A stretch of 30,666 bases of DNA from IMG/VR virus record IMGVR_UViG_3300045611_000182, positions 1-30,666 of that record; one strand, 5' to 3'. Made by a program: the position numbers and the translations under genes. Below are positions 4,090-30,474 of this stretch, one piece after another. The DNA comes from a virus. Position 1 is the first letter of the stretch. Every line of letters starts with the position of its first letter. The notes under the pieces were generated by a model. That model had not been told where the DNA came from and did no database searches. It saw nothing but the letters and a program-made list of their open reading frames with translations.

Positions 4090-4123
4090 TCGTGGAAGAG
4101 CCGGCGGCGCGAACTGAATGAGG

Positions 4124-4555
4124 TCAACGGCGATGAAAAAGGAGCTCGATGAACATAAGCAGCTCGTCGGCCTCTCGGCGCAGTTCTTCTTTACAGTGTG
4201 CGCCGCTGTCCTCATCGGCGGCGGCATACAAGCGGTGCGTGAAATTTGCCAACCTGGACCACGGAAACCCTTTGCCGAACTCGTAAGTAATGGCGGATCT
4301 GGCTTTATCGAGCTCCTCTGTGACGGCCAGCGCAAGCTTCGCGACCTTTGGGGCCGGAGTCGGGGGATCGCTGTGTATCGCGAAGACCAAGGCCCTGAGT
4401 CGTTCGCGCAGCGCGTCCAGAATCTGCATTCTGCGGGCATGATCGCGGTCACGCCGGTCAAGCGCGCGGATCCAGAGCGTCGTCGCCAGGCCGACGCCAC
4501 CGCCAGCGGCGACGAGCGCAACATCATGGATGAGCGTCACAAGCCAATCTGGCAT
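4124..4555 (-). CDS. Leftward membrane protein (moron)
   Basis: 143 residues starting MPDWLVTLIHDVALVAAGGG at 4555, with GGGAG about 8 bases upstream. One membrane segment (about residues 8-30) is followed by a basic stretch RALDRRDRDHARR and a long helical, charged domain ending LLMFIELLFHRR. It is the only leftward gene in the rightward block, which is typical of a moron expressed from the prophage. Its 5' end overlaps the 5' end of the rightward holin candidate by 30 bases. No family recognised; a superinfection-exclusion or membrane role would be a guess. Confidence 0.65.
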   Translation of the reverse strand: MPDWLVTLIHDVALVAAGGGVGLATTLWIRALDRRDRDHARRMQILDALRERLRALVFAIHSDPPTPAPKVAKLALAVTEELDKARSAITYEFGKGFPWSRLANFTHRLYAAADEDSGAHCKEELRREADELLMFIELLFHRR

Positions 4556-4687
4556 CAACTTCTCCCTACCATCAAGGACGTCGGGCTGGTAGTCCTGGGA
4601 GGCTTTATCGCGTGCTCGGCGTTCTGGTTCCGTGAGCATCGCCGCTGGCGGGAGTGGGACCGGCGCTGGCGGCTTTTCGAGACATAA
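4526..4687 (+). CDS. Holin candidate (single-pass, 53 aa)
   Basis: 53 residues starting MDERHKPIWHQLLPTIKDVG. One hydrophobic segment (about residues 18-36, VGLVVLGGFIACSAFWF) is followed by a strongly charged tail (REHRRWREWDRRWRLFE). Small size, a single membrane span, a charged C-terminus and a position 17 bases before the hydrolase gene fit a holin of a phage lysis cassette. The frame is open well upstream, so the exact start is uncertain; codon third positions become GC-rich after the first dozen codons. The 5' end overlaps the divergent gene at 4124-4555. The call rests on topology and context only. Confidence 0.5.
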   Translation: MDERHKPIWHQLLPTIKDVGLVVLGGFIACSAFWFREHRRWREWDRRWRLFET

Positions 4688-4704
4688 GGTAGCGCTGAGG
4701 CGTG

Positions 4705-5388
4705 ATGGCGGCAAATCCACAACGGCAGCCGCTGCTGATGACCGTCGATCAGTTTAGCAGGATGATCGACCGGTTGGTGGTCTGGCCTGGCGACCTGGTG
4801 CTGTGTCGCGGGCGCTCACGCTGGGCGTGGCTGATCGAGCGCTCGCAGCGGCGGATGCTGCGCGATCTGTGCCCGCTGATGGGGTGCGAGGAACTGCGCG
4901 CGGCGGCGTGGTACACGCATGCGATGTGCGTCTTGAGTACCGTGATGCTCGGCGAGATGACCTCGCCGGTGGCAACCTGCGAATTCTGGGCTCGGCGACT
5001 ACAGCCCGGAGATCGGCTGTTGGTGCGGCGCCCGCAACCGGATCAGCGCGGGCCGACGAGTTCGCTCGAGCTCGGGCAGAAAATCGCGGAGTTCTGCGGG
5101 CAGGATGTGCTGGCGGACCGCGACTACCCCGAGCGCGAGCGGCTGGTCTACTACCTGTGGAGCTGGGGTCTGCAGAAGCTGACGCTCGGGCGGCGGTTCG
5201 TGAACGTGTTCACCGATGATGAGAGCGATGTGTGCTCCGGGCGGTACTGGTACTGGTGCACGCAGGCTGGGGTATGGACCGACCTGACGGCGGCGGAGCA
5301 CCGGCCCGAGGGGCACTATCCGGCGGAGCTGGCGGTGTCGCGCCGGCTGCGCACGATTGCCGAGATTCAGATCACAGAGGGCCAGTGA
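4705..5388 (+). CDS. Permuted papain-like (YiiX/NlpC-P60 type) cysteine hydrolase, endolysin candidate
   Basis: 227 residues from ATG 4705 (GTG 4702 equally possible); TGAGG lies just upstream. The order of motifs matches permuted papain-like hydrolases: PGDLVLCRG at 28-36, His72 in YTHAMCVL, then Cys177 in DVCSGRYWYWC, so His precedes the catalytic Cys. Such enzymes cut amide bonds in peptidoglycan peptides or lipids. No signal peptide is seen, consistent with release through a holin. It lies between the holin candidate and a spanin-like gene that overlaps its stop (GTGA). An alternative is a virion-associated or host-modifying hydrolase of the same fold. Confidence 0.65.
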   Translation: MAANPQRQPLLMTVDQFSRMIDRLVVWPGDLVLCRGRSRWAWLIERSQRRMLRDLCPLMGCEELRAAAWYTHAMCVLSTVMLGEMTSPVATCEFWARRLQPGDRLLVRRPQPDQRGPTSSLELGQKIAEFCGQDVLADRDYPERERLVYYLWSWGLQKLTLGRRFVNVFTDDESDVCSGRYWYWCTQAGVWTDLTAAEHRPEGHYPAELAVSRRLRTIAEIQITEGQ

Positions 5389-5630
5389 AAAGGCAAAGTA
5401 CTGCACTCCGATGCACGCTGAGGCGGAATTCGTGGCTGGCCCTCTGTCTTGTCGTCGGCGGCTGGGCCTGGGGCTGCCGCACGGTCGGGCCGATTGTGAC
5501 GCTGCGGCAGTGCGAGCAGGCAACGGTCGTGGTCTACTGCGGTCCGGCGGCGGCAGCGCAGGGCAAGACCGTCGTCACGCCGGTGGATGTGGCGCACGGC
5601 GCGAAGCTCAGCGGGCTGCCGGGAGAGTAG
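5385..5630 (+). CDS. Spanin-like small exported protein
   Basis: 81 residues, GTG start overlapping the hydrolase stop (GTGA 5385-5388). The N-terminus is basic (KRQSTALRCTLRRNSW), then LALCLVVGGWAWGC, a signal segment with Cys31 after Ala-Trp-Gly, an imperfect lipobox. The mature part is short and Ala/Val-rich with Cys residues at about 43 and 52. Size, the lipoprotein-like signal and the position after the endolysin candidate fit an outer-membrane spanin (Rz1-like), which would imply a diderm host. Spanins are usually Pro-rich and this one is not, so the call is tentative. Confidence 0.55.
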   Translation: MKRQSTALRCTLRRNSWLALCLVVGGWAWGCRTVGPIVTLRQCEQATVVVYCGPAAAAQGKTVVTPVDVAHGAKLSGLPGE

Positions 5631-5922
5631 TAGCCGCAAAGAGGCGCACAAGGAGTCGATACCCCACCAAAGGTAGAAGGGCACGAGAGTAACGGCAGGT
5701 GTTCGCCGGGGGTTGAGCTGCGGGAAACCCCCACAATGCCGGGTCTCCTATACGGGGCGGGACTCGAGGGAGCGCCGGGCGAGCCGCGCGGCGGCGGAGA
5801 TCGGCGTCAAGCGCAGTGGGTGAAATCTGCCCGGTTCGGCGAGCACATGGCGCCGAATGGTTTCCGGTTGGACGGCGGATCCGCCGCGCCGTCCGACCAC
5901 CACCAGCAAGGAAGGGCACAAC
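5631..5922 (+). other. Noncoding stretch with strong RNA hairpins
   Basis: 292 bases without a convincing gene. Stem 1 pairs GGGGGTT (5708-5714) with AACCCCC (5726-5732) around an 11-base loop. Stem 2 pairs 5866-5876 with 5888-5898 (11 base pairs, one G-U), closed internally by the palindrome GGCGGATCCGCC (5875-5886). AAGGAAGGG after stem 2 is the ribosome site of the next gene. No U-run follows either stem, so they are not classic terminators. A leader or processing element before the morphogenesis genes, or a small RNA, is possible. Confidence 0.5.
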
Positions 5923-6306
5923 GTGCAGATCGCACCAATCATCGGCGACGGACTGGTCAGTGGCGCAACGGGCGGGGCGGTTGTCGGGATGCTGGTGCTC
6001 GCGGCGACAAGGCTGTGGGTGACGCGCCTCGTGCAGCGCGTGGACTACCTCGAGGAGCACCGCGTCGGTACAATCGAGGGCCGGGTGATGATCCTCGAAC
6101 GAAAAGAGGCTCGTGCGGACACGACGGCCGCTACCGTCGACGCGATCAAAACGACAGTCGTTCGCATCGAGGGCAAGGTCGACGGTTTCACGGCGGACAT
6201 AGCGCGGCTGCAACAGGCACAGGAAAACACGCACGAATACCTGACGCACGTGGACGCGGAACTGTCGGAGCACCTGGGCAAAGCCGGAGGCCGGCGCCAT
6301 GGCTGA
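5923..6306 (+). CDS. Mu gp25-like (DUF2730-type) membrane-anchored coiled-coil protein
   Basis: 127 residues, GTG start with AAGGAAGGG about 6 bases upstream. One membrane segment at about 12-32 (SGATGGAVVGMLVLAATRLW) is followed by a long heptad-rich coiled coil (RLVQRVDYLEEHRVG... to about residue 115). Mu-like phages carry a protein of this topology just before gp26/gp27 and the terminase. Its role there is not established. It overlaps the next gene by 8 bases. The family name is assigned from topology and gene order. Confidence 0.6.
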   Translation: MQIAPIIGDGLVSGATGGAVVGMLVLAATRLWVTRLVQRVDYLEEHRVGTIEGRVMILERKEARADTTAATVDAIKTTVVRIEGKVDGFTADIARLQQAQENTHEYLTHVDAELSEHLGKAGGRRHG

Positions 6307-24606: not shown

Positions 24607-25413
24607 ATGGCGGATTATGCCGACTATCAAATCGTGCTGTACCACAACCTGAAGGGCAGCAATTACGAGCTCGGCAGCGGCGGCACGACTGTCCCGACGG
24701 ACGTTGACTACGCGCGCGGCAGCCTGCCTCCACGCATCCCGACGGGCGTCAGCATTAAGATCAAGACGAAGTTCTTCGACGACCAGGCGCGGAGCAAGTA
24801 CCACGATTTCACCAACTCGACCGGATGGAACTTGTACGGGCTGCCGATCGGGAACGCCGCGAGTCCGACACTGCTCGATACCGGCACGCTTACGGGCGTG
24901 ACGCCGGCGAACGGCGAAGTGCTGTTCGTCATTCCGAAGGACACGATCCCGGCGGATTGGGCGAGCTGGGAAGATAAGGTGCGTATCTGGTTCGAGATCA
25001 CCGATGCCGACAGCAAACTCATTGTGTGGCAGGACGTCGAGATCGTCGATATGCAGTACGATCCCGACGTGGACTATCCTGAGAGCGAGGACATTCCACG
25101 GACCAACCAGGATATCACCGGTGCCGCCGCCGTGACGCTGCCGGCGGTCGCCGGCGGGCTGAAGAACGTGCGTATCAACACGACGAGCGGCAATTACGCC
25201 GTGACCCTATACAGCGCCGCGCACGCGAAGGCCGGCGAACTGGTATGTGTGATCGTGGCGGGCACCAACACCGCGGCGATCACGCCGGCTGGCATCGAGA
25301 CGATCAACGGCAACTCCGGCGCACAGAATCTGAGCGGCATCGGGAACAAGATGCACCTGATCCCGTGGAACGGCAACTGGATCATGCTGAACCCGGCACC
25401 AGGGATTGACTGA
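24607..25413 (+). CDS. Baseplate/fibre-type protein with BppU-like N-terminus
   Basis: 268 residues starting MADYADYQIVLYHNLKGSNY. The N-terminal 165 residues look like baseplate upper proteins (MADYADYQ..., SIKIKTKFFDDQ, FEITDADSKLIVWQD). The C-terminal 100 residues form a beta domain ending LIPWNGNWIMLNPAPGID that is shared with the next gene. It lies at the start of the fibre-like block. Confidence 0.5.
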   Translation: MADYADYQIVLYHNLKGSNYELGSGGTTVPTDVDYARGSLPPRIPTGVSIKIKTKFFDDQARSKYHDFTNSTGWNLYGLPIGNAASPTLLDTGTLTGVTPANGEVLFVIPKDTIPADWASWEDKVRIWFEITDADSKLIVWQDVEIVDMQYDPDVDYPESEDIPRTNQDITGAAAVTLPAVAGGLKNVRINTTSGNYAVTLYSAAHAKAGELVCVIVAGTNTAAITPAGIETINGNSGAQNLSGIGNKMHLIPWNGNWIMLNPAPGID

Positions 25414-25416
25414 ACG

Positions 25417-25755
25417 ATGGCAACGGAGCACGTAAAGACCACGATCCGCCCGATCAGCGCCGATGCCACATACGCGGGTGGCAGCGGACGGTCTGTATTC
25501 GTGCTGGATACGCAGTACAGCGCGATCACGCTGACCGTTACGGGGATTGGCGACCAGGAGGAGCTGCTGGTAGTCAACGGGCGCGATACCGGGTATGCGG
25601 GGAAGGTACGCACGAGCGGGATCACGATCAACGGGCGCAGCTTCGGCAGCGGCGCCGAGGTCGAGCTGAGCAGCATCGGGAATCACCTCGAGCTCATCGG
25701 GTGGGGTGGCAACGCGATCAACAAGAATCCGGCACCGGGACTGGCACCACCATGA
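25417..25755 (+). CDS. Small fibre-domain protein, related to the end of the previous gene
   Basis: 112 residues starting MATEHVKTTIRPISADATYA. Its last 60 residues (TGIGDQEELLVVNGRDTG..., SSIGNHLELIGWGGNA, NKNPAPG) match the C-terminal domain of 24607-25413. It could be a separate copy of the fibre cap or an assembly partner. TGA overlaps the next ATG (25752-25755). Confidence 0.55.
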   Translation: MATEHVKTTIRPISADATYAGGSGRSVFVLDTQYSAITLTVTGIGDQEELLVVNGRDTGYAGKVRTSGITINGRSFGSGAEVELSSIGNHLELIGWGGNAINKNPAPGLAPP

Positions 25756-27281
25756 GAGAGTACCTGAGCGGGCACAGACTGAAGATTTTTGCAGGCATGG
25801 GGCTGGCGGCGCTGGCTTTGCTGGCGCTCGGCGGCACGGGCGCGTGGAATCCGCTGCGCGTCTATACCAGTCCTGCGGACACCGCAGACGCGAACGTCAA
25901 CGCGACCGGGCAGTGGGTGTTCAGCGAACTGATGTTGAAGGCGGCGACAGAGGTCACCGTCTCGAGCGGCGCGATCACGGTCACGCAGATGCATCATACG
26001 GTGGACGGCGAGGGCGATCTCAGCGACAACCTCGACACGATCACCTGGAGCGGCGTGGCGGACGGGCAGGTCCTCTGGTTGCGGCCGGCGAACGCCGCAC
26101 GCGACATCACCGTGCGGCACAACCAGGACAACATCTACACGCCGAGCGGGGTTAATTACCAGATCCCGGATAACGCCGTGGTTCAGTTCATGTACTCGAG
26201 CGGCGCCAGTAAGTGGCTTCTGGCGGGCGCAAGCGATATGAGCATGACCACGTATGATGCGGATGCGAACGGCAAAATCGATGCCGCGGCGGGCGGCACG
26301 AACATTAGCACCGCGAGCTCGACGGGGCTGCCGATCTTGTCGACGGGGACGTGGAGTATTGCCGCGACGGTGCCGCTGACGCGCGGGGGCCTGGCTGCGG
26401 ACGTGTCGGCGTATGCTGGGCTCGTGAAGATCAGCGGCGGCGCCGCGAGCGCGGTCACAATAACGGCCGCCGGCGAGGCGATCCTGGACGATGCGGACGC
26501 TGCAACGCAGCGCACGACGCTTGGCCTCGGCACGATTGCGACGCAGAATGCGAACGCGGTCGCGATTACCGGGGGCACCATCAACGGCGCGACCGTCGGA
26601 GCAAGTACGCCAGCGGCGGGCACATTCACCGCACTTGGGCTGCCGGCGGCCACGGAACTGACCATATCCGGCGGAGTTATCACGATCACGCAGAGCCTGC
26701 ACCGCGTGGACGGCCAAGGAGACCTCGATGATAATCTCGACACCATCAACGGCGGGGCCTCCGGGCGCGTGCTTTTGCTGTACCCCGAGAACGCCGCACG
26801 CAACATCACGCTCCGACATGGTACTGGGAACATCGTCACCGGCGACGGCGCCAACTACACCATCCCGGACAACGGGTTGGTGCTCTTGGCCTACGACGGG
26901 AGCAACTGGCGCATGGTGGCCGGGACTGGTGGCGGCACCGTGGGGTCCTGTACGTTCACGTTCACCATTGCCGACGACGGGGATGACGACAACCAGCACT
27001 TCGAGGTTGAAATCGACGATGACCCCGCCTTTGGCTCGCCTGCCATCTCATGGGACACACGCCCGACGGAGGACGGCACCACGGGCTGCCGGTACTTCAA
27101 CGGCACGCAGTGGACGGACTGGCCGGTTGGCGGCGTCACGGCGGCATACGAGGGCCAGCGCGGGAGCTACTCGTTCGCAGCATCGAGCATCACGGCTGGT
27201 ACGCTCTACTACTGCCGCATCCGGTTTCACGATGGCACGGGCTTTGGCCCGTATGCAGGGGACATGAAAACATGGCAGTAA
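25752..27281 (+). CDS. Fibre-like protein with N-terminal membrane segment
   Basis: 509 residues starting MREYLSGHRLKIFAGMGLAA. A membrane/signal segment (about 11-32) opens the protein, unusual for a phage fibre. Two related beta domains, about 64-159 (ATEVTVSSGAITVTQMHH) and about 299-393 (ATELTISGGVITITQSLHR), flank a collagen-poor fibre linker with ATQNANAVAITGGTINGATV, a phrase typical of phage tail fibres. The C-terminal 110 residues look FN3-like. Overlaps the previous gene by 4 bases and the next by 10. Confidence 0.6.
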   Translation: MREYLSGHRLKIFAGMGLAALALLALGGTGAWNPLRVYTSPADTADANVNATGQWVFSELMLKAATEVTVSSGAITVTQMHHTVDGEGDLSDNLDTITWSGVADGQVLWLRPANAARDITVRHNQDNIYTPSGVNYQIPDNAVVQFMYSSGASKWLLAGASDMSMTTYDADANGKIDAAAGGTNISTASSTGLPILSTGTWSIAATVPLTRGGLAADVSAYAGLVKISGGAASAVTITAAGEAILDDADAATQRTTLGLGTIATQNANAVAITGGTINGATVGASTPAAGTFTALGLPAATELTISGGVITITQSLHRVDGQGDLDDNLDTINGGASGRVLLLYPENAARNITLRHGTGNIVTGDGANYTIPDNGLVLLAYDGSNWRMVAGTGGGTVGSCTFTFTIADDGDDDNQHFEVEIDDDPAFGSPAISWDTRPTEDGTTGCRYFNGTQWTDWPVGGVTAAYEGQRGSYSFAASSITAGTLYYCRIRFHDGTGFGPYAGDMKTWQ

Positions 27282-28570
27282 GATTCTTGATTAAGTTGCT
27301 TGCGTTGCTCCTGCTCATCGCGGCGTGGTGCCTCGTGCCGCGCTCGCAGGCCTGGTTCGATCTGCTGGAGAACTGGCAGCACTGCTACCTGGCGTACATC
27401 GACGATGAGGATGTGCGACCGGTGTATCACGATGCCGTGCTCGGCGGATTCGGGGCTGCCGCAATCGACGATTACGATGCGTATCTCAAGGCCTACTACC
27501 GATTGGAGGAAGCGAGCGGCGACCGGGCAGACGACGTGAACGCGCACACGATGAATGAGGTCGTGGGCGTTGGAAACATGGTCGGGAAATCGAACAACGC
27601 GGCAAGTTTTCCAGGAGTCAACCAATACCTGAACGAACCGGGGCAAGACTCGGATTTCGAACCGGTTAACAGCCTGGCCATATCGGCATGGATTCGCCCC
27701 CAACTGTCGGACCCTTCTACCGGATATGTATGGATGAAAAACTCCAGCTACGGGCTGCACTACACACTAAATAGCATGGCCAGCACATATGTCAATTTCA
27801 CCGTATTTGCGGTAGAGACTGAGGTGTTCTCGGTCATGGGAGCGTTGACCGACGACTGGCACCACGTCGTAGCGGTCGCTGACCAACGCACAACGCGGCT
27901 GTACCTGTATATCGACGGTGTCAAGACACAATCCTCCGGCACGTATACGCCGCCGATCACCGCGGCTATCGACGGACTCCAGATTGGTGGAACTACGGCA
28001 GGCGGCAAATGGAAAGGCGGCATTGATGAAGCCGCCTTTTGGAAAGAGCCGTACTGGGCGGACAACGCGGACCGCGATGCTTTTGCCGCAGCGCTCTACA
28101 ACTCGGGAGCGGGGCGCTTCTACAGCGGCGGCAGTCCCGCATATGTGGACGCGCCGGACGGCCAGACGGTCGAAGTGCCCTTAACGATTCGCGTTCGAAC
28201 CCACAAGCACACCGCAGACTTGACGGACGTGAAAATCCAGTGGCGGCAGCCAGGGGCTGCGGTGTGGACCGATGCGCCGATTACCTATACCGGCGGGACC
28301 GGCGACGAACTGGAGTTCAACTGGCCGGCCTGCTCTTTGGGGATTGAGTCGGTCACGAGCGCAAACTACAGCAAGGGCGACGCGATGCGGATTCGATTGT
28401 ACGTCAGCGATGGCATCTACGAGAACGGCGACCTCAGTCAGGACCCGGACGCTGAAGGGGGCACCGGGACCTGGCTCGATCAGTATGTCTGGTCGGGCAC
28501 GGCGCATGCGGTTAGTTGGAGAACAGGCAGACCTGGGATCGATATGACATGTTTTCCCGTCCCACCATAA
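27272..28570 (+). CDS. Exported LamG/concanavalin-like lectin protein
   Basis: 432 residues starting MAVRFLIKLLALLLLIAAWC, with CAGGGG about 10 bases upstream. A signal peptide (to about residue 28, PRSQA) is followed by a LamG-type jelly roll (about 90-285; NSLAISAWIRPQ, WHHVVAVADQRTTRLYLYID, IDGLQIGG) that normally binds sugars or matrix. The C-terminal 150 residues look Ig-like (VEVPLTIRVRTHKHTADLTD). The stretch 27540-27860 is visibly richer in A/T than its neighbours, a hint of separate origin. Could be a receptor-binding or host-surface protein. Confidence 0.7.
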   Translation: MAVRFLIKLLALLLLIAAWCLVPRSQAWFDLLENWQHCYLAYIDDEDVRPVYHDAVLGGFGAAAIDDYDAYLKAYYRLEEASGDRADDVNAHTMNEVVGVGNMVGKSNNAASFPGVNQYLNEPGQDSDFEPVNSLAISAWIRPQLSDPSTGYVWMKNSSYGLHYTLNSMASTYVNFTVFAVETEVFSVMGALTDDWHHVVAVADQRTTRLYLYIDGVKTQSSGTYTPPITAAIDGLQIGGTTAGGKWKGGIDEAAFWKEPYWADNADRDAFAAALYNSGAGRFYSGGSPAYVDAPDGQTVEVPLTIRVRTHKHTADLTDVKIQWRQPGAAVWTDAPITYTGGTGDELEFNWPACSLGIESVTSANYSKGDAMRIRLYVSDGIYENGDLSQDPDAEGGTGTWLDQYVWSGTAHAVSWRTGRPGIDMTCFPVPP

Positions 28571-29586
28571 TCGTATTTGTGCTCCTCTGCTTGGTGGTGG
28601 TAGCGGCCGAGCCGCCGAGACGTCCGGAGAAGTCCGTCCACACGCGGAGGCCCACAGCCGTTGCCGCGCCGACGTTGCCTGCCGTGACCGGCGAGGTCAA
28701 GTGCGCGCCCATCGCGTCGCCTATGGGCTCTGTCAGCACCGCGGCGCTCCTGCATCGCGCGGCGCCGCTCGCGGTGGTGCCATTGCCTCCTGACTGGACC
28801 GGGATCCGCTGCATCGGAGAGATCTGGACGCCGTACACCGACGCCGAGGCCGAGAACCAGCGCGCGGAGCTGGCGTGGTTCCATGCTCGCGGGTACAGCG
28901 GGGCCCTGATCGTCTGGCGCGGCGAGAATCCGCTGCCGCTGGCCGGCGTCGCGCGCGAACTGAAAGCGGATGGGTGGCGCCTGCTATTGACGTACGGTCC
29001 CGCTGATAGTGCCGACCCGATCGTGCCGGCATGGTCAGATGTCGACATTGCCATGCGAGCATTGCTGCCGTGTGTGGATGTGCTCCTGACCGCCTGGCGC
29101 GGCACCGCCTGGCCGCACTGGGAATCATTGCAGCAGGAGATGGAGTTTGCCGAGCACCTGGCAACGATTGGGCGCCAAATCGCTCCCGCAATGCCGATCC
29201 TCGGTGAGGCATTCGTTACTCCGCGCCGGGAGGTAATCATCGCGGCCCCGGAGTGCGCGGCCGGCCTGGTGACGATGAACGTCGGCTGCGAGAACCTACG
29301 CCCTGACGGCATTCTGGGCCTGATTCGGCCCCTTACGCCAGCGCCTCTGATGGTGTTAATCCTGGGGCCGCGCGCGTACTGGAATAGCCTCGATCTGCGC
29401 GGGAGTCCGCTGTCTGCAGACCGCGTGCGGGAGTCTTGCAGGTACCTTGAAAACCGGTGGCAACAGGTTGGCTACGTCGGCACGATCACCCTTGTCGGCG
29501 ACGGCTTTGGTACGCGTCCTCATCTGGGCGTGATGAAGACAGATGCGTTGACGAGAACTCATTGGCGAAAGGATGGTGAGCGATGA
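28549..29586 (+). CDS. Exported protein with possible TIM-barrel region
   Basis: 345 residues from ATG 28549 (TTG 28516 would add 11). Begins MFSRPTIIVFVLLCLVVVAA, a signal segment, then a Pro/Arg linker. Residues about 95-330 alternate strands and helices (WFHARGYSGALIVWRGENPL; GWRLLLTYGPADSADP; YVGTITLVGDGFG) like glycosidase-type barrels, but catalytic acids cannot be assigned. It overlaps the LamG gene by 22 bases, so the two are probably co-translated. Role unknown; a surface sugar hydrolase is an inference. Confidence 0.5.
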   Translation: MFSRPTIIVFVLLCLVVVAAEPPRRPEKSVHTRRPTAVAAPTLPAVTGEVKCAPIASPMGSVSTAALLHRAAPLAVVPLPPDWTGIRCIGEIWTPYTDAEAENQRAELAWFHARGYSGALIVWRGENPLPLAGVARELKADGWRLLLTYGPADSADPIVPAWSDVDIAMRALLPCVDVLLTAWRGTAWPHWESLQQEMEFAEHLATIGRQIAPAMPILGEAFVTPRREVIIAAPECAAGLVTMNVGCENLRPDGILGLIRPLTPAPLMVLILGPRAYWNSLDLRGSPLSADRVRESCRYLENRWQQVGYVGTITLVGDGFGTRPHLGVMKTDALTRTHWRKDGER

Positions 29587-30299
29587 AGCGGAAGGTGGTG
29601 GTATTGGGACTGTTGGGTGTGTGTGCACTGATCCAGGCTGCGAATGCCGGGGGTGCGGCTACTCCCGCCGCGGTTGCCGAGCCAACCCCGGAGGAGCTGG
29701 CGATCAAGGCTAACGCTGCGGCCGACGATCTCCTGGGCAAGGGCAAAAAGAGCGAGGCCATTGCCGCCTATAAGGTCGTGGCGGAGAAGGCTGATTGGCC
29801 GGACAAACAGCGCCAGTATGCCCTGCATCTGGCCTGCAGAACCATGGCGCTGGACTCCGCCGACGCCGCACTTGCGTACCTCACACGAGCGGAGGGGTTT
29901 GGGCTGAGCGCGCGCAGTATGTGCCACACGCGGATGCAGGTGCAGTTCGCAGTGCGGGACTGGCCAGCGCTTCTGGCCGAAGCGCAGAGCGCCTATCCGC
30001 ACGGAGAGGCCAGCGCGGCGTACTTCGAGATGACGGCGCAGCAGAACCTCGGCGACAAGCTGAAGGCATGGGAGGCTGCGGCCAGGGCATTGCTGAGCGG
30101 TGATCGCCCGGCTGGATCCATGGCTGATACCTGCTGGCGGTTCCTGGACCGCAACAGCAGCCTCATCACGAACCAAGAAGGGGGGATGCAGCGCTGGTAC
30201 GACACCCTGCAGCGGTTGGCGCTCAACTACCCTGATGAACAGCCCTGGGCCGGCCTGAAGGCCCGCATTAAGTCCCGTCTTGGTGACTTTGTGAAGTGA
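29583..30299 (+). CDS. Exported helical-repeat (TPR-like) protein
   Basis: 238 residues starting MKRKVVVLGLLGVCALIQAA, a clear signal peptide ending ANAGGA. The mature part is a series of helix pairs (AADDLLGKGKKSEAIAAYKVV; CRTMALDSADAALAYLTRAE) with the Ala/Leu pattern of TPR-like repeats, ending KARIKSRLGDFVK. The start overlaps the previous gene by 4 bases. It is the last phage gene before the right end. A periplasmic or cell-surface scaffolding role is possible. Confidence 0.65.
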   Translation: MKRKVVVLGLLGVCALIQAANAGGAATPAAVAEPTPEELAIKANAAADDLLGKGKKSEAIAAYKVVAEKADWPDKQRQYALHLACRTMALDSADAALAYLTRAEGFGLSARSMCHTRMQVQFAVRDWPALLAEAQSAYPHGEASAAYFEMTAQQNLGDKLKAWEAAARALLSGDRPAGSMADTCWRFLDRNSSLITNQEGGMQRWYDTLQRLALNYPDEQPWAGLKARIKSRLGDFVK

Positions 30300-30474
30300 C
30301 TCGCCACCGGAGGGAGGATGCAACTTTGACCGCCCGCTCGCCGCCTCCTGTTTGATTTTCGGTTTGCATAAAATGCGTTCTTCCCGTCGACCCCCACTCC
30401 GGGGAGTTTAGAGGTCTGCCCCCTAACTGCGCAACCTTTTTCTGGGTTTTGCGCAAACCTTTTCCGGCCCTACA
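30300..30474. other. Phage right end, noncoding
   Basis: 175 bases from the last gene stop to the inferred phage end at 30474. On the complementary strand the end reads TGTAGGGCCGGAAAAGG, starting TGTA as Mu-type ends do. Lower GC than the coding part, with two direct repeats near the end. A 5-base ACTCC/GGAGT palindrome occurs near 30400. No gene is supported. Confidence 0.7.
30428..30465. repeat. Two direct end repeats (transposase-site candidates)
   Basis: TGCGCAACCTTTTTC (30428-30442) and TGCGCAAACCTTTTCC (30450-30465) are spaced 22 bases start to start. The second overlaps the inverted repeat GGTTTTGCGCAAACC. Repeats of this size near a TG...CA end are what a MuA-type transposase would bind. 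Confidence 0.65.

What the first reader, a model, noticed from the sequence alone, without database searches (positions are those of the whole stretch)
25752..30299. Four consecutive overlapping genes all encoding exported or membrane-anchored proteins
Fibre-like, LamG, barrel-like and helical-repeat products each start with a signal or membrane segment (residues about 11-32, 1-28, 1-20, 1-22) and the genes overlap by 4-22 bases. Tail genes normally lack such signals. The set may be a cell-surface or secreted system carried by the prophage, for example a sugar-binding and processing layer, rather than only tail parts. This is the best candidate for an undescribed system in the window.
Basis: partly seen in the sequence, partly recalled or inferred. 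Interest (0 to 1): 0.65.

Follow-up and report, generated by a model that had tools for sequence, protein, structure and literature searches.

The report
Exported module beside phage tail fibre
At the end of a Mu-like prophage, a tail-fibre gene is followed by three genes for proteins that appear to be exported to the cell envelope; the same fibre-plus-exported-protein block recurs in prophages of one group of Verrucomicrobiota, belongs to no family in the databases searched, and may alter the cell surface so that phages do not re-attach.

Summary
The last four genes of a Mu-like late operon (25752-30299) overlap by 4-22 bases. They are the only 4 of 22 late genes with a hydrophobic N-terminus. 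Background in related phages is 6.8%, with no run longer than 3 in 88 loci.

The block is not a lone oddity. Relatives of g3 occur in 11 of 198 genomes of one Verrucomicrobiota class. Where contigs are long enough the order is the same: fibre with a g1-type tip, exported g2, optional Zn-ribbon protein, exported or anchored g3, exported g4, then often p104 and a lipoprotein. In four genomes this lies on one contig downstream of a Mu-like terminase. G189 lacks the block but keeps p104 and the lipoprotein, so the block behaves as a unit in the tail-fibre slot.

g1 is a tail fibre; its membrane segment is absent in relatives. g2 carries a LamG insert absent in relatives. g3 is predicted to be a TIM barrel. 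No database family covers g3 or g4.

Best reading: an envelope module tied to fibre specificity, working like the Cor/Llp exclusion loci. Export is well supported by prediction; the function is inferred. Rivals: virion parts with membrane leaders; lysis or release.

The parts
25752..27281 (+). g1: tail fibre (509 aa) with an N-terminal membrane segment (residues about 10-31), two depolymerase-C-type beta domains, a tail-fibre repeat and a C-terminal tip domain (g1C)
   Evidence: PF25692 E 3.2e-7; tail-fibre matches in phages
25779..25844 (+). hydrophobic segment of g1, absent from the relatives in the same position whose N-terminus is visible
26922..27278 (+). g1C tip domain, the part of g1 conserved upstream of g2 in other prophages
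   Evidence: A6 alignment
27272..28570 (+). g2: exported protein (432 aa): signal peptide, short conserved AWF segment, LamG insert, conserved beta-rich C-terminal domain
   Evidence: homology to L167, L168, L171, L173, L190
27650..28048 (+). LamG (PF13385) insert in g2, absent from relatives
   Evidence: E 3e-15; gap in A4
28151..28537 (+). conserved C-terminal domain of g2
   Evidence: BLASTP to L167 E 9e-15 and L168 E 2e-10; g2C profile
28549..29586 (+). g3: exported protein (345 aa): signal peptide (residues 1-19), low-confidence linker to about 75, TIM barrel about 76-318
28774..29502 (+). TIM-barrel domain of g3; R87, H190, R209, G219, G319 invariant; E91, W183, E301, D318 nearly so
   Evidence: pLDDT mostly above 85; Foldseek
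29583..30299 (+). g4: exported protein (238 aa), signal peptide 1-22, Ala-rich and probably helical; positional counterpart of g4 in other prophages
   Evidence: position; sequence homology not shown

Best explanation
g1-g4 is one exchangeable block in the tail-fibre slot at the 3' end of the late operon of Mu-like prophages from a Verrucomicrobiota class. g1 is the fibre. g2, g3 and g4 are translated with it (overlapping genes) and exported by Sec into the envelope, where g3 is soluble or, in some relatives, held in the inner membrane by its N-terminal anchor. The most likely job of the exported part is to change or block, on the infected cell or lysogen, the surface structure that the linked fibre recognises, so that progeny and sister phages do not re-adsorb: g2 (beta domains, plus a LamG lectin-like domain here) binds, g3 (TIM barrel with conserved polar residues) acts as an enzyme on an envelope glycan, and g4 is a periplasmic partner. 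It would work like the Cor/Llp exclusion loci, which also sit directly beside the tail-fibre or receptor-binding gene. Shown: sequences, order, recurrence. Predicted: TIM-barrel fold, export. Inferred from position and analogy: late expression, enzymatic activity of g3, exclusion function. I put about 0.85 on 'fibre-linked exported module' and 0.35-0.4 on the exclusion function.
For: Recurrence and order: g3 in 11 of 198 genomes of one class, with g1C upstream in the 7 that have enough upstream DNA (weak, E about 1e-3, in two), g2 upstream, and an exported g4-type protein directly downstream. Prophage location: terminase, portal and tape-measure-size genes upstream on the same contig. Conserved export despite 20-38% identity. 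Exchange as a unit: G189 has p104 and the lipoprotein but no g1-g4. Link to the fibre tip: g1C in 6 of 197 class genomes, 5 of them g3-positive, the sixth at a contig end (three of the five supplied the profile). Precedent: T5 llp is adjacent to and downstream of the receptor-binding protein gene (PMC9586334); in T1, HK022, N15, ES18 and phi80 a membrane protein, an outer-membrane protein and Cor lie directly downstream of the tail-fibre cluster and are absent from close relatives that do not use FhuA (PMC13164509).
Against: No exclusion or receptor effect has been shown. g3 has no enzyme family (Pfam, NCBIfam and PDB sequence searches: none) and its fold matches are generic TIM barrels. No lipoprotein follows g4 in the window. 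Three exported proteins are more than the small Cor/Llp lipoproteins need. T5 Llp and T1 Cor act early in infection, whereas this block appears to be in the late operon. Signal-like leaders also occur on head proteins of some relatives, so export does not strictly follow from a leader.
Confidence: 0.4

Rival explanations
1. g1-g4 are virion parts (fibre, adhesin, tail enzyme, scaffold) and the hydrophobic N-termini are membrane-targeting or assembly leaders rather than signals for a separate envelope function.
For: They fill the tail-fibre slot and g1 is a fibre. Other Mu-like phages have signal-like leaders on virion proteins: gpT major head protein in L002, L032, L049; decoration protein in L002; major head protein in L037; fibre-like late proteins in L071, L073, L067. 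The L032/L049 leader is translated (dN 0.26, dS saturated, strong Shine-Dalgarno).
Against: In the window the head and other tail proteins have no leader. g3 in five relatives has an uncleaved type of anchor. g1, the one clear virion protein, lacks the segment in the relatives whose N-terminus is visible. Cleavable Sec signals would place g2-g4 in the periplasm, away from cytoplasmic virion assembly.
Confidence: 0.25
2. The exported genes form an auxiliary lysis or release module; g3 is the envelope hydrolase.
For: Late-operon position, exported TIM barrel, anchored form in relatives, and no endolysin recognised by Pfam among the proteins scanned from G354 and G330. G330 has a patatin-type phospholipase just after g4.
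Against: Most class genomes with a Mu-like terminase lack g3 (43 with terminase, 11 with g3) and must lyse too. g3 matches no peptidoglycan hydrolase. In Mu the lysis genes lie before the terminase (own knowledge), and in the window that place holds a TM protein (4118-4687) and a possible peptidase (4702-5388).
Confidence: 0.18
3. A lysogenic-conversion cargo that changes the lysogen's surface for the host's benefit (adhesion, polysaccharide use), unrelated to adsorption.
For: Secreted LamG protein and TIM barrel; the prophage right end is a common place for cargo genes (own knowledge).
Against: Genes overlap each other and the fibre; promoter-like sites in the region do not exceed chance; the block travels with the fibre tip; not found outside prophages.
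Confidence: 0.12

Closest known systems
Cor/Llp superinfection-exclusion loci (T5 llp beside the receptor-binding protein gene; cor locus downstream of tail-fibre genes in T1, HK022, N15, ES18, phi80)
   Same: Phage-encoded envelope proteins directly downstream of the tail-fibre gene; present or absent as a cassette; several relatives here also end with a small lipoprotein
   Different: Different proteins: no Cor/Llp relative detected; here three exported proteins including a TIM barrel, and no lipoprotein in the window itself
Tail fibres with the AILDDADAATQRTTLGLGT-type repeat and Phage_depo_C domain
   Same: g1 carries both
   Different: g1 has an N-terminal membrane segment and a C-terminal tip domain shared with this prophage group
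LamG / concanavalin A-like domain proteins (PF13385)
   Same: g2 residues 127-259 pass the curated cut-off
   Different: The domain is an insert into a g2 scaffold that lacks it in all relatives found
Phage glycoside hydrolases with a TIM barrel (for example the GH5-type protein of Pseudomonas phage POR1)
   Same: Fold class of g3
   Different: No sequence match; TM-score normalised to the query 0.45 or less; no conserved catalytic pair established
Mu-like transposable phages (Portal_Mu, Phage_Mu_F, Terminase_6)
   Same: The window's head genes
   Different: The g1-g4 block is not part of Mu

Membership tests
Cor/Llp exclusion locus | Lies directly downstream of the tail-fibre or receptor-binding gene | tested here: met
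   g2-g4 directly follow fibre g1 in the window and follow a g1C-bearing gene in seven relatives
Cor/Llp exclusion locus | Products are exported to the envelope | tested here: met
   Hydropathy prediction only; no experiment
Cor/Llp exclusion locus | Contains a small lipoprotein related to Cor or Llp | tested here: not met
   No lipoprotein after g4 in the window; no Pfam, NCBIfam or PHROG match naming Cor/Llp for g2-g4 or the relatives' lipoprotein
Cor/Llp exclusion locus | Blocks adsorption of phage using the same receptor | not testable with these tools
   Needs an adsorption assay
Phage tail fibre (g1) | Tail-fibre repeats and C-terminal beta domains | tested here: met
   PF25692 above cut-off; matches to annotated tail fibres, up to 65% identity over short stretches
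LamG domain (g2) | Match above the curated cut-off | tested here: met
   PF13385, 57.1 bits against 27.6
Glycoside hydrolase (g3) | TIM-barrel fold | tested here: met
   AlphaFold2 with 12 sequences, pLDDT mostly above 85 in residues 71-318; Foldseek top hits are TIM barrels
Glycoside hydrolase (g3) | Sequence family and conserved catalytic acids | tested here: inconclusive
   No family match; E91 and D318 nearly invariant, E220 position not conserved
Phage lysis cassette | Contains an endolysin | tested here: not met
   No peptidoglycan-hydrolase match for g2-g4
Moron / lysogenic-conversion gene | Own promoter and terminator | tested here: not met
   Overlapping genes; 3 promoter-like sites against 2.1 expected; no terminator-like site on the + strand. 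The scan covers sigma-70-type promoters only

The most novel reading that the evidence does not exclude
In some Mu-like phages virion proteins (major head protein, decoration protein, fibres, and here g1 or all of g1-g4) carry real Sec-type leaders that are used: assembly of part of the particle is coupled to the inner membrane or envelope, or exported proteins join the particle after lysis.
Probability: 0.12. Interest if true: 0.85.

Novelty: new variant of a known kind. Interest (0 to 1): 0.55.

Why it matters
If right, this is a fibre-linked exclusion or receptor-modifying module in a host group with few studied phages, built from protein families in no database searched, including an exported TIM barrel. 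It gives a concrete test of the idea that receptor specificity and receptor blocking are inherited together. The side observation that major head proteins of some Mu-like phages carry translated signal-like leaders is an open question in its own right.

Tried and rejected
Close relatives of g2, g3 and the portal by degenerate-pattern scans of IMG/VR: none; the module was found only by whole-genome searches. The portal scan of genomes also found nothing. g2 structure: model too poor to use (pLDDT 42.6), so no fold search was run on it. g4: no sequence homology to the g4 family beyond position and signal. 50,697 deposited phages: no relatives of g2, g3 or g4; 72,556 plasmids: none of g3. Planctomycetota: 0 of 199 genomes with g3. 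Literature searches found no description of such a block. Considered and rejected: start-codon artefact for g1 (the ATGA overlap places the start before the membrane segment and no nearby later start avoids it); host genes mistaken for phage genes (same order in independent prophages).

Full report
Observation. The window is a virus record holding most of a Mu-like prophage: terminase (PF03237/PF17289), a fused Portal_Mu and Phage_Mu_F protein, head, connector and tape-measure genes, all on the + strand. DNA weakly resembling a host solute-binding protein gene starts near 30450. Using one hydropathy rule on 22 late genes, only these four have a signal-like or membrane N-terminus. In Mu-like relatives 62 of 909 late genes pass a best-start version of the rule and no locus of 88 has more than three in a row.

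Recurrence. Searching 388 genomes of one phylum with g3 plus g4 found g3 relatives; a profile search of one class of 198 genomes found g3 in 11, against 0 of 199 Planctomycetota. The phylum is that of a locus titled 'Verrucomicrobiales bacterium' (L074); the class is not named by the tool. The neighbourhoods have the same order: a gene ending in the g1C tip domain (found in seven, weakly in two of them; no signal in the six whose N-terminus is visible), a g2 relative with a signal peptide, in three genomes a Zn-ribbon-like protein, g3 with a signal or an N-terminal anchor, one or two g4-type exported proteins, and often a small protein p104 and a lipoprotein. In G330, G121, G354 and G502 a Mu-like terminase lies upstream on the same contig. 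G189 has a Mu-like prophage with p104 and the lipoprotein but no g1-g4. The block therefore appears to be an exchangeable unit in the tail-fibre slot.

The proteins. g1 is a tail fibre: Phage_depo_C domains and the fibre repeat shared with annotated fibres of Rhizobium and other phages. Its membrane segment is found only in the window. g2 has a signal peptide, a short AWF segment and a C-terminal domain conserved at 29-37% identity; the LamG domain is an insert not seen in relatives. g3 is modelled as a TIM barrel with high confidence in residues 71-318. Invariant R87, H190 and R209 and nearly invariant E91, W183, E301 and D318 suggest an active site, but no enzyme family matches by sequence and fold matches are generic. 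g4 is a signal-bearing protein in the conserved position; its homology to the other g4 proteins could not be shown. None of g3, g4, the Zn-ribbon protein, p104 or the lipoprotein matches a Pfam, NCBIfam or PHROG family convincingly in the scans made, and g3 has no relative in 50,697 phages or 72,556 plasmids.

Interpretation. Export signals kept at 20-38% protein identity argue that export of g2-g4 is functional. The gene overlaps with the fibre, the lack of promoter-like sites beyond chance and the joint presence with the fibre tip argue that the block is expressed with, and matched to, the fibre. The best precedent is the exclusion loci of other phages: T5 Llp, encoded adjacent to and downstream of the receptor-binding protein, acts from the periplasm to close its receptor (PMC9586334), and the T1/N15/phi80-type cor locus, with two further membrane proteins, lies directly downstream of tail-fibre genes and follows receptor use (PMC13164509). 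By analogy g2-g4 would modify or block what the fibre recognises. This is inference: the function is untested, the proteins are unrelated to Cor/Llp, and those precedents act early in infection.

Caution on signals. In several Mu-like relatives virion proteins themselves have signal-like leaders: the gpT-family head protein in L002, L032 and L049, a decoration protein in L002, the head protein of L037, and fibre-like late proteins in Nitrospirae prophages L071, L073 and L067 (the last judged fibre-like by eye from their repeats). Comparison of L032 and L049 shows that the leader is translated and conserved. A leader alone is therefore no proof that a late protein is outside the virion, which keeps the virion rival alive.

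Verdict.

Noticed in passing
L002 16545-17600, L032 12517-13563, L049 5892-6941: gpT-family major head proteins of Mu-like phages begin with a signal-like leader before the head domain; 3 of 35 gpT relatives among held loci. The L032/L049 leader is under protein-level constraint.
   Followed up: partly
L071 18354-20670, L073 16958-20110, L067 19541-21221: Nitrospirae Mu-like prophages have two to three consecutive signal-bearing genes, some fibre-like, inside the late module; independent of the g1-g4 block.
   Followed up: partly
L037 15471-16490 and 18420-20369; L143 127-1407 and 6101-8086: One viral record has signal-like N-termini on its head protein and on three other late proteins, one with the DUF5907 repeat (PF19264).
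   Followed up: partly
window 24607-25755: The two genes before g1 (268 and 112 aa) end in similar beta-rich sequence finishing in NPAPG, probably further fibre or capping proteins.
   Followed up: no
window 4118-6306: Genes before the terminase include a TM protein (4118-4687) and a possible papain-like peptidase (4702-5388, judged by eye), the likely lysis genes; no Pfam or PHROG match names them.
   Followed up: partly
L168 9994-10866 (minus strand): A patatin-like phospholipase (PF01734, E 3e-24) directly follows g4 in the G330 prophage.
   Followed up: no
L191 8141-9298 (minus strand): The linker of this g3 relative is a run of VPVEVLASVPVDVLKS-type repeats before the barrel.
   Followed up: no
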